This document shows positions 4,760 through 15,355 of a stretch of 64,000 nucleotides of DNA, piece after piece; position 1 is the first letter of the stretch, and each line of letters opens with the position of its first letter. The position numbers were made by a program, and so were the translations under genes. The notes beneath the pieces were generated by a model. The model was not told the origin of the DNA and made no database searches. It worked only from the letters and a program-made list of their open reading frames with translations. The DNA is from Alteriqipengyuania flavescens. GTDB taxonomy: Bacteria > Pseudomonadota > Alphaproteobacteria > Sphingomonadales > Sphingomonadaceae. The stretch covers positions 1 to 64,000 of the forward strand of contig NZ_CP129107.1 of NCBI RefSeq assembly GCF_030406725.1. The letters are read 5' to 3'.

Positions 4760-5175
4760 CAGACCTTCCTTTCTCGGTAGTGGGTGGTGAACTCGACCGC
4801 CCAGCTCAGCGCGCTGGCATCGATGTCGAGCAGGCGTCCGCCCGCCAGGAAGCAGCCGCTCGCCGCTTCCGGGTGCTGCCATCCGAACAGCGCGTCCTTC
4901 ACGCGGGCGATTTCGTCGTGCAGCTGCTCGTCGACTGCCGCGTGGCCGGCGCGGCCGGCGGGCTTCATCACGATCACGACGGAAAAGGCGAAGGTCAGCT
5001 TCTGGTCGTAGGCACCGACCCGCTGGCTGCCCTGCGCCCGCTCGTTCTCGGGGATCACGAAATGCGCCGGCAGCGCGCGCGGCGGCGACTTCAGCTGCGC
5101 GAACTCGAACAGGCCGCTCACGTGCTCGCACCCCGCCTCGCGCAGCCGATCGGCGATGGGCTGGCTGGCGATCAT
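4759..5175 (-). CDS. Tail terminator (Gp37-like) protein
   Basis: This 138-residue protein sits between the gpG-type protein and the tail tube, where tail terminators lie in transposable siphophages. It starts MIASQPIADRLREAGCEHV and contains a central beta-strand pair (LTFAFSVVIVMKP) and a closing strand (ALSWAVEFTTHYRE), a pattern like Gp37/tail terminator folds that cap the tail tube. Both gene ends overlap their neighbours by four bases (ATGA). The assignment is by length, position and general pattern rather than by an invariant motif. Confidence 0.65.
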   Translation of the reverse strand: MIASQPIADRLREAGCEHVSGLFEFAQLKSPPRALPAHFVIPENERAQGSQRVGAYDQKLTFAFSVVIVMKPAGRAGHAAVDEQLHDEIARVKDALFGWQHPEAASGCFLAGGRLLDIDASALSWAVEFTTHYRERKV

Positions 5176-9365: not shown

Positions 9366-9839
9366 GGCAGGCTCCTTTTCGGTTTCGGGTTCGGTGTGGA
9401 TGGTGATCGCCTCGCCCGGCTCGCACTCGGCGAACTGGACGGTGCCCAGCCCCTTGATCCCGGCCGCGTGCGCGCCGAGGAAGCCGACGTGCTTCAGGTA
9501 CCAGTTGCCGGGCTTGGGGTTGTGCGGGTGCGCCGGTTCGTACAGCCGGGCGGAGACCTTGCGATAATCGCCTTGGCGGACGCGCTCGGCAAAGGCGGGC
9601 GAGATCCGGTCGGGCCGGGCGACGAGCTCGCCGTCCTCGACCGCCAGGCTGCCGACCCAGCCATAAGCCGGGTCGTCCATTTCCGGGTGCCCGATCACCA
9701 GCGGCGCGGGATCGCTGTCGGCGTCGTAGCCGGCGGCGATCGCGGCGAGGTCGGCCGCGCCGAACGTCACCGTCTTGCCCTCGACCGAACGGAAGGTGCC
9801 TTGCTTCAGGATGCGAATGCGGGGCGGGGTTTGATCCAT
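8772..9839 (-). CDS. Phage head maturation protease/scaffold (Mu gpI-like)
   Basis: This 355-residue protein is the first gene of the minus arm. Residues 1 to about 150 form the Mu gpI-type protease domain (PF10123): a conserved GHPEMDDPAYGWV element near residue 50 and a WYLKHVGFLGAHA element near residue 120. After residue 150 comes a low-complexity Ala/Pro/Thr linker, then a coiled-coil-like region rich in Arg/Glu/Ala and a scaffold-type C-terminus. An internal in-frame start at residue 159 is listed separately. The protease would cut the scaffold and itself during head maturation. The ATG at 9839 has only a weak AGGG ribosome binding site. Confidence 0.87.
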   Translation of the reverse strand: MDQTPPRIRILKQGTFRSVEGKTVTFGAADLAAIAAGYDADSDPAPLVIGHPEMDDPAYGWVGSLAVEDGELVARPDRISPAFAERVRQGDYRKVSARLYEPAHPHNPKPGNWYLKHVGFLGAHAAGIKGLGTVQFAECEPGEAITIHTEPETEKEPAMATPTATPSAQTAAPAETAPAQTASAATSPNESSFAERSAALDRREADIAKREADQAKAAKAARHAANVSFAEGLIGEAKLAPAGKDLVIGVLDALGELETDAEVSFGEGDAAKSLSPDAALKTLLSGGGTIVSLGESAKPEAKGAASVSTGFAAPPGYTVDQDQAALHAEATKIRSATPAKPWMDCVREAQASLAS

Positions 9840-10021: not shown

Positions 10022-10462
10022 ATGGCTTTCGAGACGATCGAGAACTGCGCCCCGGCTAAGCCCGCGGCCGTGCCCGCCGACGGTGTCCGCTTCACCGCGC
10101 GAACCTTGCAGCGTCGGGATCGGAAAGCGCCGGCCCGCTTCATCTTGCTGTCGATCGGGGCAGCGCTGGCGAAGCGCCTGGCGCTGTCGGGCGAACGGAC
10201 TTCGCTTGCGTTGGCCTTCGGCTCGGGCAGCGATGCCGGCAAAATGCGCCTGTCGGTCGATGTCTCGTCCGGCAGCTTCCCCGCGAAGCGCGACAAGAAG
10301 GGCAATTACAACCTCACCTTGAACGCGGCGACCGCCGACGGCCTGTTCGCGCTCGAGTTCGAACCCGCCAGCGTGCCAGAGGTCGAAGTGGGTGCGGCCA
10401 TGGGCAAGCCGCCGTTCGCGATAGTCGATCTGCCCGAAGCGATGCTGGCCCTGGACGACTAG
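10022..10462 (+). CDS. Phage protein, unknown function (146 aa)
   Basis: The ATG at 10022 is chosen because CAGGAG lies ten bases upstream; an ATG at 10001 and longer readings through the C tract are possible but lack such a site. The product is 146 residues with a helical first half (ARFILLSIGAALAKRLAL) and a beta-rich second half (KMRLSVDVSSGSF, NYNLTLNAATADGLFALEFE). It ends with an acidic tail. It stands alone on the plus strand between the two arms and is followed by a hairpin terminator. No family was recognised. Confidence 0.65.
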   Translation: MAFETIENCAPAKPAAVPADGVRFTARTLQRRDRKAPARFILLSIGAALAKRLALSGERTSLALAFGSGSDAGKMRLSVDVSSGSFPAKRDKKGNYNLTLNAATADGLFALEFEPASVPEVEVGAAMGKPPFAIVDLPEAMLALDD

Positions 10463-10513: not shown

Positions 10514-10589
10514 GCTTTATGCCGTGAGCATAAATGCACAGCAATCTGGGCGCAATTTCAGGGGTGCCCGCACCCCACCTAGCCAAAAG

Positions 10590-10612
10590 CGCCTCGAAGC
10601 AATTCTGAGGCG
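10590..10612. terminator. Bidirectional hairpin terminator
   Basis: A CGCCTC/GAGGCG stem with an 11-base loop is followed by TTTTT on the plus strand and by CTTTT on the minus strand. It lies at the convergence of the plus-strand phage gene and the minus-strand repressor-cargo operon and can serve both. Confidence 0.65.
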
Positions 10613-10670
10613 TTTTTCGCGGGGGTGTGATTTTCGCTTAGCCGAAGTGGCGTAGGCGTCGTCCGGCCGG

Positions 10671-10766
10671 TCAGCCCAGCCAAGTCCGCAGCGGTGGTAT
10701 AACGAGGAGCGCGTAGAAGGCAGCCGCCGCCGCCAGCGCACCCCAGAACCGCACGCGCCGCTTCAC
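10671..10766 (-). CDS. 31-residue membrane peptide coupled to the nuclease gene
   Basis: A GTG start overlaps the stop of the nuclease gene as GTGA. The 31-residue product has a basic start (VKRRVRFWG), one hydrophobic segment of about 18 residues (ALAAAAAFYALLVIPP) and a short end TWLG. It therefore looks like a single-pass inner membrane peptide with the N-terminus in the cytoplasm. It is the last frame before a hairpin terminator. No family was recognised. Its small size leaves real doubt, but the coupling and clean membrane pattern support it. Confidence 0.5.
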   Translation of the reverse strand: MKRRVRFWGALAAAAAFYALLVIPPLRTWLG

Positions 10767-11095
10767 GGCCAGCGGCGCGCGTGGCCTCGGGCCAGCAGCC
10801 GCTCGCCGAGGTCGCCCTGGTCGGTCGCGCACCGCGCCACCGGCCGCCCGAAGCGGTCCCGCTCCTGGAAACCGTTGATGCGCGGATCGGCGTCGACCAG
10901 CTCACACCGCACCTGGCGTCCCGCGATCATCGCCGCGAGCGCGTCACCCGCTTCGGCAAAGCCCGTCTCCCCTCGCTCAGGCGCGTCGATCCGCGCCAGG
11001 CGTACCCTGCCGTTGGCATCCGCCACGTTGGCGCAGCGCAGCGTGTCCCCGTCGACGACCACGGCGGACAGGCAGAAAAATACCGTGAGCACCAC
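10763..11095 (-). CDS. Thermonuclease-family (SNase-like) nuclease, probably exported
   Basis: This 110-residue protein has the staphylococcal nuclease signature: VVDGDTLRC at residues 13 to 21, RLARIDAPERGE around residues 32 to 43 with the catalytic Arg and Glu, and ERDRFGRPVARC near residue 80 with the second catalytic Arg. It is a minimal version of the domain. The first dozen residues (VLTVFFCLSA) are hydrophobic and look like a short export signal. A GTG start abuts the stop of the upstream secreted-protein gene. It is on the same strand as the repressor, so it may be expressed in the lysogen. Substrate would be DNA or RNA, probably in the periplasm. Confidence 0.82.
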   Translation of the reverse strand: MVLTVFFCLSAVVVDGDTLRCANVADANGRVRLARIDAPERGETGFAEAGDALAAMIAGRQVRCELVDADPRINGFQERDRFGRPVARCATDQGDLGERLLARGHARRWP

Positions 11096-11644
11096 TCAGC
11101 CGGCGAAGGGATCGAAGGAAGGATCGGTGCGCAGGTGCGAGCGGCACGCGTCGAGCATCCCGAATGCGTTGTTCGAACCGCTGAGGTCGAACTGGGCGAA
11201 AGGCACCCCTTCGTGGCCGAACCAGATCGTCGTCGCTTCGCGCAGCTGCTGGTCGAACTGGGCACCGTCGTTCGCCGCGCGCAGGATCCGCCAGTTAATG
11301 CGCGGCCCGCCATCCTCTTCCGCCGTGCCGGCCGCATCGAGCGTCCAGATATCGCGAATGTCGCCTGCACTGTCGAGCAGGATCGCCTGCAGTTCCACAT
11401 CTCCTGTCTCGAGGCTGGACCACGCGGGATTGGAAAGCGCGAAGTCGTAAGCGTTGCGCGAACCGTGGGCGAAGACCGTCAGAGCCGACCCGTTGTAGTG
11501 CTCGGGAAAACGCATCAGGCAGACGCCTAGGCCCGCGTCTCCCACCACCGTCCACTCGCCGTCGGTTTGCTGGAATGTCACCGCCCGCTGGCCATCCTGC
11601 ACTGCGAGACCCAGCGCCGCCACCAGTCCGAACAGTCCGATCAT
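11096..11644 (-). CDS. Secreted protein of unknown function in the repressor-linked operon
   Basis: The ATG at 11644 has a GGGGAGG ribosome binding site and gives 182 residues starting MIGLFGLVAALGLAVQDGQ, a signal peptide with a likely cleavage before or near the Gln-Asp-Gly. The mature part is beta-rich with motifs GVCLMRFPEHYNGSALTVFA and INWRILRAANDGAQFDQQL and two cysteines. It resembles small sphingomonad periplasmic proteins but no named family was recognised. It lies 11 bases after the repressor and one base before the nuclease, so the three genes look co-transcribed. Confidence 0.75.
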   Translation of the reverse strand: MIGLFGLVAALGLAVQDGQRAVTFQQTDGEWTVVGDAGLGVCLMRFPEHYNGSALTVFAHGSRNAYDFALSNPAWSSLETGDVELQAILLDSAGDIRDIWTLDAAGTAEEDGGPRINWRILRAANDGAQFDQQLREATTIWFGHEGVPFAQFDLSGSNNAFGMLDACRSHLRTDPSFDPFAG

Positions 11645-11655
11645 CGCATCCTCCC

Positions 11656-12303
11656 CTATAAGGATCGCAAGCAGGCTACGACCCGGCCAACCAGCTGGCA
11701 ATCGTCTTCCGCGATCAGGTAATCCGAGACGTGCGGATTGTCGGATAGCGCCTCGACCTGTCCGCCGCCGAGCACCCGCAGGCGCTTGACCATCCCGACC
11801 TCGCCGATCGCCAGCGCCCAGATCTGGTCGCTCATCCGCAAATGATTCTGCGCCAGGTCGATCAGCAGCAGGTCGCCGTCACTCAGCGTCGGCTTCATGC
11901 TGTCGCCGATCCCCCGCACCAGCCGCAGCTTGTCGGCGGGCGACTTGGTGAACCCGGCGATCAGCGACTTGGGGAATTGCTCGACCCGCTCCTCGGCGTG
12001 CTCGTCGATGAAGGTTCCGCCCAGGCCGTAAGCGAGGTCGAGAACGCGGATCGGGACCGTTTCTGATACCTCCTCAGATGACTGCAAGTCCTTGGTCAAC
12101 CGCTTACCGAACACGATGAAATGCAAGTCGAGGCCGATCTCGTCGATCTTTGCCATGGTCGCCGTATTCAATGACGTCCGATCGTTCTCGTATGCGATCA
12201 TCGTGTTCTTAGAGACGCCGAGTTCGGTCGCAAGGTTCGCCTGAGATAATCCCGCCCGCTCGCGTTCCGCGCGAAGCCGCGAACCATAAGTTCCCTCACC
12301 CAT
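11656..12303 (-). CDS. Prophage repressor, XRE helix-turn-helix plus S24 peptidase-like domain
   Basis: This 215-residue protein has an N-terminal XRE helix-turn-helix (residues 8 to 60; SQANLATELGVSKNTMIAYE is the core) and a C-terminal S24/LexA-like domain. The Ser-Lys dyad is visible as GDSMKPT with Ser135 and VKRLR with Lys173, the usual 38-residue spacing. No Ala-Gly pair sits at the LexA cleavage distance, so SOS-type self-cleavage is not assured. The start is chosen at the ATG just before the XRE domain. It faces ner across 52 bases, as Mu c faces Ner, and should keep the transposase operon off in the lysogen. Confidence 0.9.
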   Translation of the reverse strand: MGEGTYGSRLRAERERAGLSQANLATELGVSKNTMIAYENDRTSLNTATMAKIDEIGLDLHFIVFGKRLTKDLQSSEEVSETVPIRVLDLAYGLGGTFIDEHAEERVEQFPKSLIAGFTKSPADKLRLVRGIGDSMKPTLSDGDLLLIDLAQNHLRMSDQIWALAIGEVGMVKRLRVLGGGQVEALSDNPHVSDYLIAEDDCQLVGRVVACLRSL

Positions 12304-12607: not shown

Positions 12608-12684
12608 GCCCCGCCTATCACGCGCCTCGCGCCGAGTCTTGTCCCTATTTCGTTCGCACCGGCGCGGGACGGTCTGCGCGATGA
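12604..12684 (+). CDS. 26-residue frame coupled between ner and transposase
   Basis: An ATG overlaps the ner stop (ATGA) and its own TGA overlaps the transposase ATG (ATGA). The product is MSPAYHAPRAESCPYFVRTG plus six residues, with no recognisable domain. It may be a real peptide or only a coupling device that carries ribosomes from ner to the transposase gene. Confidence 0.4.
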   Translation: MSPAYHAPRAESCPYFVRTGAGRSAR

Positions 12685-14531
12685 CCGGCGTGCCGAAATT
12701 CCTCTCCGCAAAACAGATCGCCGACATGGCTCTCGAAGGCCTGCCGACGACGAAGCGCGGCGTGAACAAGGTGGCGCAGCGCGATCGATGGACGTCGAAG
12801 AAACGCTGCGGCCCCGGTGGCGGGCGGCTTTACGCCGTCTCCAGCCTGCCGGTCGAAGCGCAGAACGACTTGCTGGCGCGCGCCGGCGAAGTGAAGCGCA
12901 AGCTCGCCGCTTCTTCATCGCGCGGGCGAGGGAGACCTAAGGGGAGCGGTGCATTCTTCGTCCAGCACCCCGAGATTGCTCAGGCGGTTGCGGGCTGGGT
13001 TGCTTGCCGCAAGGTCTCTGCCTCGATCATTCGCGAGATGATAGTCCAGCATTTCGACGAAGCACCCTGCCTGCGCGTGGTGCAGAAACAGATCGCGACA
13101 TTCGAACGCGACAACGAGCTTGTCCTCGAAAGCTTCCGCGATCCCTCGCGCTTCAAGTCCACCCGCCGCGTCTCGCTCGGCCGCGCCGACGCCGGGATAA
13201 CCTACGCCAACCAGCTCTGGGAGCTCGACACGACGCCTGGCGACGTTCTGCTGGTCGAAGGCAGGCGCGCCATTCTCGGCGTGATCGACGTGTTCTCGCG
13301 CCGGGTGCGCTTCCTCGTCGCCCCTTCCGAAAGCGCGCAGTCGGTCCGCCGCCTGCTCGCCTCGACGATGCAGGCCTGGGGTGCGCAGCCGACCGCCGTC
13401 GCCACCGACCAGGGTTCGGGTTACATCAACAAGGCGATCGTCAGCGCACTGGAGCTGCTCGGGATCGAGCACCGCGACTGCCCGCCGGCCAGCCCGGAGA
13501 AGAAACCGTTCATCGAACGCGTGTTCGGCACTTTCCAGCGCCAGCGCTCGGAAATCCTCGCCGGCTACTGCGGGCATGACGTGGCCGAGGCGCAGCGCCT
13601 GCGCGAACGCGCCCGCAAGGACAGCGGCAAGCCGCTGATCGTCCCCGAGATGACGGCCGTGGAACTGCAGGTCATTCTCGATAACTGGGCCGACGGTACT
13701 TACCTCCAGGCCCGTCACTCCACGCTCGGCACCACGCCGCTGGCGCGCTGGCAATCCTCTCCGCCGGGCGCAACCCGCGCGCCTTCTTCCGACGAACTGC
13801 GCATCGTCCTGTCCGCGCTGGTCGGCGAACGCACCGTCGGCAAGAAGGGCGTCGTCTGGCAGCGCGGCAGCTACTGGCACCCCGCGCTTGTCCCCTTCAT
13901 CGGCAAGACCGTCACCGTCCGCCGCGACGAGGACGAGCTCGGCGAGCTGATGGTCTTCGACGAGGACCGCCGCTTCCTCTGCACTGCCGTCAACCACGAA
14001 CGCTCCGGCCTGTCGGAGGAGGATTTCGCCCGTGCCGCCCGCCGCGACCAGGACGAATGGATGAAGGCAGCGCGCGCGGGGCTCTCGTCCAAGATGCGCC
14101 GCTACCGGATCGAGGATGCGCGCGACGCGATCCTGCGCGCCGATGCCGAGCGGGCCGGGAAGCTCGTCGCCTTTCCTTCGCGCACCGTGGCCGAACCGTC
14201 TGACACGGTCCGTTCGATCCGCGCCGCTGCCGACGCCGCCCCGCCAAAACCGACTGCGCTGCGGCAAGGACATTCCGCAGGCGCCCCCGAGCCGACCGAG
14301 GCCGATCTCGACGCCCGCGTGCGCGAGGCCGATCAGCTGCTCGCTGCCGCTGATCGCGGCGAAACGGTCGACGAGGCTCGCCTGCGCTGGGCGCGCAGCT
14401 TCGTCACCCGCTCGACCTACCTGACCCGCAAGTTCCCCGATGCCGATTTCAGCGGCGTCAACCTCTCCACCCGCGAAGGCCGCGAGGCTGCCTACCGCCA
14501 GTTCCAGAAGGCGTCCGGCTCGGCGAGCTGA
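12681..14531 (+). CDS. Mu-type DDE transposase A
   Basis: This 616-residue protein matches Mu A. Residues 5 to 65 form the MuA-N winged helix-turn-helix (FLSAKQIADMALEGLP). The integrase-like core holds the catalytic triad Asp183 (WELDTTP), Asp243 (ATDQGSGY) and Glu279 (KPFIERVFG), a D-D-35-E spacing. A beta-barrel domain (Mu_transpos_C, near residues 380 to 440) and an Arg-rich C-terminal region follow. It joins phage ends to target DNA for integration and replicative transposition. The length is slightly below Mu A (663). The start overlaps the upstream coupled frame. All catalytic residues are present. Confidence 0.95.
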   Translation: MTGVPKFLSAKQIADMALEGLPTTKRGVNKVAQRDRWTSKKRCGPGGGRLYAVSSLPVEAQNDLLARAGEVKRKLAASSSRGRGRPKGSGAFFVQHPEIAQAVAGWVACRKVSASIIREMIVQHFDEAPCLRVVQKQIATFERDNELVLESFRDPSRFKSTRRVSLGRADAGITYANQLWELDTTPGDVLLVEGRRAILGVIDVFSRRVRFLVAPSESAQSVRRLLASTMQAWGAQPTAVATDQGSGYINKAIVSALELLGIEHRDCPPASPEKKPFIERVFGTFQRQRSEILAGYCGHDVAEAQRLRERARKDSGKPLIVPEMTAVELQVILDNWADGTYLQARHSTLGTTPLARWQSSPPGATRAPSSDELRIVLSALVGERTVGKKGVVWQRGSYWHPALVPFIGKTVTVRRDEDELGELMVFDEDRRFLCTAVNHERSGLSEEDFARAARRDQDEWMKAARAGLSSKMRRYRIEDARDAILRADAERAGKLVAFPSRTVAEPSDTVRSIRAAADAAPPKPTALRQGHSAGAPEPTEADLDARVREADQLLAAADRGETVDEARLRWARSFVTRSTYLTRKFPDADFSGVNLSTREGREAAYRQFQKASGSAS

Positions 14532-14569: not shown

Positions 14570-15355
14570 ATGAAGCACCAGCACCCCATCCCGGCCAGCA
14601 AGGCGGAGCCGCCCCCTCCGCGCGGGGCAGGCCAGGCGCACCTGACCAACATGACTCTCGCCCGCCAGGCGATGGTCGATTGCACCTCGGTCGGCGAGAA
14701 CATGCCGCGTCTGGGCCTGTTCTACGGCCCGTCGGGCTACGGCAAGAGCGTGGGCGCAGCCTTCGTCGCCGCGCGTTTCGACGCGGGCTACGTCGAGGCC
14801 AAGTCGATCTGGACCCAGCGCAGCCTTCTTTCCGAACTGGCCCGCTCGATCGGCATCACCAGGATCGAGCGAACCGGCCCGCGCATTCTCGACCAGCTGA
14901 TCGAGCAGCTGCGGGCCCACCCGCGCCCGCTCATCATCGACGAGATGGATTACCTCGTGAAAAAGCAGATGGTCGATATCATCCGCGACATTCACGACGC
15001 GACTTCGGTCGCCATCCTGATGATCGGCGAGGAGGCGCTGCCGGCAAAGCTGCGCGAGTGGGAGCGGTTCGACAACCGCATCCTGGTGCGCGCCCCGGCG
15101 CAGCCTGCCAGCGAGGATGACGCGCTCAAGCTGCGCGATGCCTACCGCGGCGAGGTTGCGATTGCCGATGACCTTGCGATCGAGTTTTGCCGCGCCTGCG
15201 GCGGCGTCACGCGCCGGATCGTAATCAACCTGGAAATCGCGCAGAACCTCGCGCTCGACGCAGGCGAAGCTGCCATCGACCGGGCGTGGTGGGGCAATCG
15301 CCGCGTCGAGACGGGCGCGCTGCCCGTCCGCCGCGTTGCGGAGCGCGGCGCATGA
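14570..15355 (+). CDS. Mu B-like transposition ATPase (AAA+)
   Basis: This 261-residue protein carries a Walker A motif GPSGYGKS at residues 53 to 60 and a Walker B LIIDEMDY with Asp124-Glu125, followed by a sensor region (ILMIGEE). In Mu, B coats target DNA, selects insertion sites and activates the transposase. The gene is 38 bases downstream of the transposase, as in Mu. The first 30 residues are Pro-rich and lack the long Mu B N-terminal helix-turn-helix domain. The stop overlaps the following ATG. Confidence 0.92.
   Translation: MKHQHPIPASKAEPPPPRGAGQAHLTNMTLARQAMVDCTSVGENMPRLGLFYGPSGYGKSVGAAFVAARFDAGYVEAKSIWTQRSLLSELARSIGITRIERTGPRILDQLIEQLRAHPRPLIIDEMDYLVKKQMVDIIRDIHDATSVAILMIGEEALPAKLREWERFDNRILVRAPAQPASEDDALKLRDAYRGEVAIADDLAIEFCRACGGVTRRIVINLEIAQNLALDAGEAAIDRAWWGNRRVETGALPVRRVAERGA

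What the first reader, a model, noticed from the sequence alone, without database searches (positions are those of the whole stretch)
10671..11644. Repressor-linked cargo operon: secreted protein, exported thermonuclease, membrane peptide
Three genes follow the repressor on its strand with gaps of 11 bases, one base and an overlap, then a terminator. All three appear to enter or cross the inner membrane. Being tied to the repressor, they should be expressed in the lysogen. A periplasmic nuclease with a partner and a membrane peptide next to an immunity gene could be a superinfection-exclusion or host-fitness module not described before.
Basis: inference. Interest (0 to 1): 0.6.

Follow-up and report, generated by a model that had tools for sequence, protein, structure and literature searches.

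The report
Repressor-linked nuclease cargo in Mu-like prophage
Right behind the gene that keeps this bacterial virus dormant sits a small gene cluster, found in changing versions in at least nine related viruses, that encodes a cell-envelope protein and a small DNA-cutting enzyme, most likely used by the dormant virus to keep other DNA (rival viruses or stray DNA) out of its host.

Summary
The genes are real. Downstream of a CI-like S24 repressor in a Mu-like prophage lie ORF1 (182 aa), a staphylococcal-nuclease-family enzyme (110 aa) and a doubtful 31-aa membrane peptide, then a hairpin terminator.

The exact trio was not found elsewhere, but the core is. Searching with the nuclease alone, nine relatives with enough upstream sequence all have an S24/HTH repressor upstream on the same strand: eight viral contigs and one Erythrobacter MAG. 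Between repressor and nuclease lies a changing partner: lipoproteins of three families, ORF1-type, or membrane-anchored. A syntenic sister Mu-like phage keeps repressor and nuclease but has an unrelated partner. In 20 repressor loci the first gene is a lipoprotein in 9 (11 with shorter starts), against 1 of 180 other ORFs. So this is a repressor-linked hotspot of envelope cargo.

Correction: the nuclease's "signal peptide" is modelled as strand β1 of its fold, so export is not shown, although four invariant cysteines favour an oxidising compartment.

Most likely role: lysogen-expressed barrier to incoming DNA (superinfection exclusion, or blocking transformation as proposed for YokF/Dns/IdeA). 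No function was tested. New variant of a known kind.

The parts
11656..12303 (-). S24-peptidase CI-like immunity repressor, first gene of the operon
   Evidence: Pfam Peptidase_S24 1.8e-14 plus HTH_3/HTH_31; PHROG transcriptional repressor 1.8e-32
11096..11644 (-). ORF1, 182 aa, predicted periplasmic beta-rich protein, two cysteines (C42, C167) conserved in all four relatives aligned
   Evidence: SD GGGGAGG; 46% identical relative in the repressor-SNase operon of L074; relatives with signal peptides in chromosomes of the family; first 20 residues under pLDDT 50
10763..11095 (-). Small SNase-family nuclease, 109-110 aa, catalytic residues conserved, four invariant cysteines
   Evidence: Pfam SNase 22.3 bits over cut-off 21; AF2 pLDDT 90, Z 14.0 and rmsd 2.3 to staphylococcal nuclease; residues aligned with S. 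nuclease D21/R35/D40/E43/R87 invariant in 10 relatives
10671..10766 (-). Putative 31-aa single-span membrane peptide (GTG, GTGA overlap with the nuclease stop)
   Evidence: coding-like codon composition; no relative found downstream of the nuclease in the loci read
10584..10632 (-). Bidirectional hairpin terminator closing the operon
   Evidence: -12.4 kcal/mol on the - strand, -17.0 on the + strand, z -2.6 and -2.9
12639..14531 (+). MuA-type DDE transposase, divergent from the repressor
   Evidence: Pfam rve 1.3e-14, Mu-transpos_C 1.7e-14, HTH_Tnp_Mu_1 3.6e-12
14570..15355 (+). MuB-type transposition ATPase
   Evidence: PHROG DNA transposition protein 8.4e-47
10025..10462 (+). 145-aa gene convergent with the cargo operon; counterpart at the same place in the sister phage L070
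   Evidence: short DNA match window 10361-10330 to L070 7197-7228, similar 146-aa ORF in L070; no family

Best explanation
The region is the lysogeny operon of a Mu-like prophage: immunity repressor, then a cargo module transcribed with it. Shown: gene order, tight spacing, terminator hairpin, purifying selection on the nuclease and ORF1, and recurrence of repressor - exchangeable envelope protein - small SNase in other phages. Inferred: because they ride on the repressor transcript, the cargo is made in the quiescent lysogen; ORF1 works in the periplasm and the nuclease acts with it at the envelope. The module makes the lysogen refractory to incoming DNA: the exchangeable partner recognises or stalls a particular DNA-entry route, and the conserved nuclease cuts the DNA. 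The main target is more likely superinfecting phage DNA than transforming DNA.
For: A search with the SNase alone, blind to the repressor, found relatives that all have an S24/HTH repressor upstream on the same strand where enough sequence is held: L006, L068, L070, L072-L076 and the Erythrobacter MAG L089. In the window, L006, L068, L070 and L074 the nuclease start touches or overlaps the previous stop. In 20 repressor loci the first downstream gene is a lipoprotein in 9 (11 with shorter starts), against 1 of 180 other ORFs. Sister phage L070: backbone blocks 71-80% DNA identity and SNase 76%, but no match for the partner gene. Partners recur in different combinations. ORF1 and the nuclease carry invariant cysteines; the nuclease has 4 or 6 in all 11 loci against 0.55 per 100 aa in other phage genes. 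Precedents: Ltp lipoprotein in a lysogeny module blocks phage DNA injection (PMC3952083); prophage nuclease YokF, an SNase, and Dns lower transformation (PMC4774983).
Against: No expression or infection data. The nuclease has no leader that could be removed without losing strand beta-1, so its export is unproven. No cargo protein matches a known defence family. Several loci have apparently cytosolic or unknown first genes (HIRAN, bPH, WYL). ORF1's relatives include chromosomal proteins outside any prophage context seen, so it could have a housekeeping role.
Confidence: 0.42

Rival explanations
1. Anti-transformation device: the nuclease, exported or surface-held, destroys environmental DNA taken up into the periplasm, protecting the prophage from being replaced by homologous recombination; the partner anchors or helps it.
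For: Known role proposed for prophage or ICE DNases YokF, Dns and IdeA (PMC4774983); YokF is an SNase-family lipoprotein of prophage SPbeta.
Against: The partner gene is exchanged between sister phages, as expected if it must match changing phage targets; uptake of naked DNA would not demand that. Competence of these hosts is unknown; export unproven.
Confidence: 0.2
2. The nuclease is a cytoplasmic enzyme without leader; it acts on DNA inside the cell (incoming phage DNA, or host DNA on induction), and the envelope protein before it is an independent cargo gene.
For: N-terminal hydrophobic stretch forms strand beta-1 in a confident model, and relatives with leaders keep the same F-x-C...VDGDTLRC block after a separate leader.
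Against: Four or six cysteines in every phage copy, with four conserved positions, in a cysteine-poor phage proteome; an unspecific nuclease made constitutively in the cytoplasm should harm the lysogen.
Confidence: 0.2
3. General host-fitness cargo: envelope protein plus nuclease help the lysogen use DNA as phosphate or carbon source or shape biofilm DNA.
For: Distant relatives of both proteins are chromosomal in this family.
Against: Does not explain the linkage to the immunity repressor or the turnover of partners.
Confidence: 0.1
4. Hitch-hiking only: the gap behind the repressor is a tolerated insertion site and the genes have no joint function.
For: Content of the site is very variable, including cytosolic domains.
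Against: SNase always behind a repressor in nine other loci, with dN/dS 0.11-0.31; lipoproteins far above background.
Confidence: 0.08

Closest known systems
YokF, SNase-family lipoprotein nuclease of Bacillus prophage SPbeta
   Same: Prophage-encoded nuclease with an SNase domain (Pfam 9.5e-33; 27% identity over 100 aa), reported to lower transformation about tenfold (PMC4774983).
   Different: 296 aa with an Excalibur domain and annotated as a putative lipoprotein; not next to a repressor in the stretch read; ours is about 110 aa without a clear leader and sits in the repressor operon.
Ltp superinfection-exclusion lipoprotein of Streptococcus phages TP-J34/TP-778
   Same: Exported protein encoded in the lysogeny module, on the repressor's strand, made in the prophage state (PMC3952083).
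   Different: No nuclease partner; no sequence comparison with ORF1 was made; window ORF1 lacks a lipobox, although many relatives' partners have one.
Dns of Campylobacter prophage CJIE1 and IdeA of a Vibrio cholerae ICE
   Different: Not compared by sequence here; no repressor link or exchangeable envelope partner stated there.
mEpimmI phage exclusion lipoproteins
   Same: Several lipoprotein types in one phage group; two of them shown to exclude different phages, which parallels the exchangeable partner (PMC11893012).
   Different: Located in the structural gene cluster, no nuclease.

Membership tests
SNase / thermonuclease (PF00565) | Profile match above the curated cut-off | tested here: met
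   22.3 bits against 21
SNase / thermonuclease (PF00565) | OB-type SNase fold | tested here: met
   AF2 pLDDT 90.4; Z 14.0, rmsd 2.3 over 100 residues to 1snd
SNase / thermonuclease (PF00565) | Catalytic residues equivalent to D21, R35, D40, E43, R87 | tested here: met
   D16, R31, D36, E39, R83 invariant in 10 phage sequences and aligned with S. nuclease by profile
SNase / thermonuclease (PF00565) | Nuclease activity | not testable with these tools
   needs purified protein
Prophage-encoded exported DNase (YokF/Dns/IdeA kind) | Encoded in a prophage or integrative element | tested here: met
   Mu-like prophage genes on both sides
Prophage-encoded exported DNase (YokF/Dns/IdeA kind) | Leader for export | tested here: inconclusive
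   13-15 hydrophobic residues that are also strand beta-1; even, invariant cysteines favour an oxidising compartment
Prophage-encoded exported DNase (YokF/Dns/IdeA kind) | Lowers natural transformation | not testable with these tools
   no experiment
Lysogeny-module superinfection-exclusion protein (Ltp kind) | Gene in the repressor operon | tested here: met
   11-base gap behind the repressor, no promoter-like site found between
Lysogeny-module superinfection-exclusion protein (Ltp kind) | Lipobox / membrane anchor | tested here: not met
   window ORF1 has no lipobox; partners in 9-11 of 20 related loci do
Lysogeny-module superinfection-exclusion protein (Ltp kind) | Blocks DNA injection of other phages | not testable with these tools
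   no experiment
Known anti-phage defence systems (PADLOC) | Match to a defence-family profile | tested here: not met
   no match for ORF1, SNase or 8 partner proteins at E 0.1

The most novel reading that the evidence does not exclude
A two-part exclusion system of alphaproteobacterial prophages: an exchangeable periplasmic or lipoprotein partner stalls DNA of particular rival phages in the envelope, and a dedicated, disulfide-bonded mini-SNase encoded behind it in the repressor operon destroys it. The phage would carry both the block and the shredder.
Probability: 0.2. Interest if true: 0.68.

Novelty: new variant of a known kind. Interest (0 to 1): 0.45.

Why it matters
It defines a recurrent place, directly behind the immunity repressor, where prophages of this bacterial group carry fast-changing envelope proteins, often with the same small nuclease. 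That gives a short list of candidate exclusion factors in a group where I found little described, and a simple genetic test: delete the cargo while keeping immunity. If the nuclease works with the partner, it would show a phage carrying its own enzyme to destroy DNA stalled in the envelope.

Tried and rejected
ORF1 alone: no relative in the phage collection or, with single-sequence patterns, in viral contigs; its relative in L074 appeared only through the nuclease search. A viral scan with the ORF1 pair returned only L074's own contig. Fold search for ORF1: modest model (pLDDT 62.7, two sequences) and no PDB or viral match that fits, TM normalised by the query under 0.35; I draw nothing from it. 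Genome scan with the single nuclease sequence found nothing; with the four-row alignment it gave only L089 as a close hit among many ordinary thermonucleases. The closest order-level SNase hits (L037-L040) are in other contexts and were not counted as the module. Defence library: nothing. Lipobox for the nuclease rejected: the residue before C7 is mostly F, L or V, and the same cysteine lies inside the domain of relatives with a separate leader. A 53-aa membrane peptide was rejected in favour of 31 aa on codon composition.

Full report
CONTEXT. The window starts inside a Mu-like prophage: MuA and MuB, terminase, Mu portal and MuF run right from 12.6 to 26.7 kb; head protease and major capsid run left from 9.8 kb. 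The left arm continues at the other end of the contig, with an endolysin. The repressor and its cargo lie between the two arms.

THE OPERON. An S24/HTH repressor (12303-11656) is followed after 11 bases by ORF1 (11644-11096), which has the Shine-Dalgarno GGGGAGG. Its TGA is directly followed by the GTG of the nuclease (11095-10763). A GTGA overlap leads to a 31-codon ORF (10766-10671). A bidirectional hairpin (10632-10584) folds better than all but 2 of 200 shuffles. No sigma-70-like promoter was found in the region (weak evidence in this group). Cotranscription is inferred.

THE NUCLEASE. It belongs to the SNase family by profile and by predicted fold: pLDDT 90, Z 14.0 and rmsd 2.3 to staphylococcal nuclease. 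The catalytic set is invariant in ten phage sequences. Pairwise dN is 0.21-0.41 and dS 1.2-2.7, so it is under purifying selection. It has four cysteines, as do eight relatives; L075 and L076 have six. Other phage proteins in the window average 0.55 per 100 residues. Against export, the first 14 residues occupy the place of S. nuclease residues 6-19, strand beta-1. Relatives with a long N-terminal leader or anchor (L101, L136, L023) carry the same block, F-x-C followed by five residues and DGDT(L/I)RC, after that leader. In the window an in-frame stop directly precedes the start, so no longer leader exists. Export remains possible because of the cysteines. Disulfide pairing was not tested.

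ORF1. It has no known family. One phage relative, 46% identical, lies in contig L074 in a chain running from an HTH repressor through several further genes to the same small nuclease. That relative begins MRSLRISGCLLASAFALGG, a typical signal peptide by eye. More distant relatives with signal peptides occur in chromosomes of the same family. Two cysteines are invariant. I infer a soluble periplasmic protein; the window copy's own signal sequence is weak because it has no basic residue.

RECURRENCE. A scan of viral contigs with the nuclease alignment alone gave close relatives; every one with enough upstream sequence has an S24/HTH repressor upstream on the same strand: L006, L068 (= L050), L070 (= L047), L072, L073, L074, L075, L076, plus the Erythrobacter MAG L089. 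L069 and L071 are cut off by contig ends. What lies between differs: lipoprotein family A (L006, L076; also without nuclease in L051, L061, L062, L063), family B (L072, L073; similarity seen by eye), a tRNA_anti-like lipoprotein (L075; here other genes on the opposite strand also intervene), ORF1 type (window, L074), a 205-aa secreted protein plus a 31-aa membrane peptide (L070), a 336-aa protein with a possible membrane span (L068), and a 106-aa anchored protein (L089). L070 is a true sister of the window phage: backbone blocks match at 71-80% DNA identity and the nuclease at 76%, while the partner gene shows no match. The nuclease is thus retained while its partner is replaced.

HOTSPOT TEST. 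In 20 repressor loci (several related, so not all independent), the first downstream gene is called a lipoprotein in 9, and in 11 if shorter starts are allowed in L063 and L064. Among 180 other likely coding ORFs in the same loci the call was made once. Cytosolic or other domains also occur there: HIRAN, bacterial PH, WYL.

RARITY. In about 400 genomes of the family only the window's genome and the L089 genome carry a nuclease of this close clade; three others match more weakly. It is an uncommon cargo.

FUNCTION. The literature gives two precedents: lysogeny-module lipoproteins that stop phage DNA injection (PMC3952083), with different lipoproteins excluding different phages (PMC11893012), and prophage DNases that lower transformation (PMC4774983), of which YokF is an SNase. 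Marine Citromicrobium carry Mu-like prophages whose lysogens show superinfection immunity and more phage resistance with more prophages (PMC12486242); that paper does not mention nucleases in its main text. I judge a barrier to incoming DNA most likely and superinfection exclusion more likely than anti-transformation, because the partner turns over between sister phages. All functional steps are inference.

VERDICT. The general claim (repressor-linked nuclease plus partner, found in other prophages) holds; the exact trio, the export of the nuclease and the membrane peptide are weaker than stated.

Noticed in passing
window 1-27000 and L046 10400-19068: The Mu-like prophage has a two-armed layout: repressor and transposase sit in the middle, head-protease/capsid/tail/lysis genes run left and terminase/portal/MuF run right, unlike Mu where repressor and transposase are at the left end. 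The sister phage L070 shares the arrangement around the repressor.
   Followed up: partly
L070 5588-6536: Behind the nuclease of the sister phage sits an HTH protein followed by an IrrE-like M78 metallopeptidase, absent from the window phage: possibly further lysogeny cargo or a second regulator.
   Followed up: partly
L053 3286-3672, L057 4680-5051, L198 5086-5568: Bacterial PH-domain genes are the first gene after the repressor in several related phages; in SPbeta a PH-domain gene (yokE) also neighbours the SNase gene yokF. Possibly a coincidence.
   Followed up: partly
L057 5695-5808, L070 about 4885-4980: Small single-span membrane peptides with a similar IEF-(A/F)-L core appear in this region of two different phages; in L070 the stop overlaps the nuclease start.
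   Followed up: no
L076 5001-5246 and L040 about 9505-9834: Nuclease copies that look broken (frame lost or internal stop), suggesting the gene is sometimes lost.
   Followed up: no
L046 9432-10622: A second S24-type regulator gene lies next to the left end of the prophage, apparently host-encoded.
   Followed up: no
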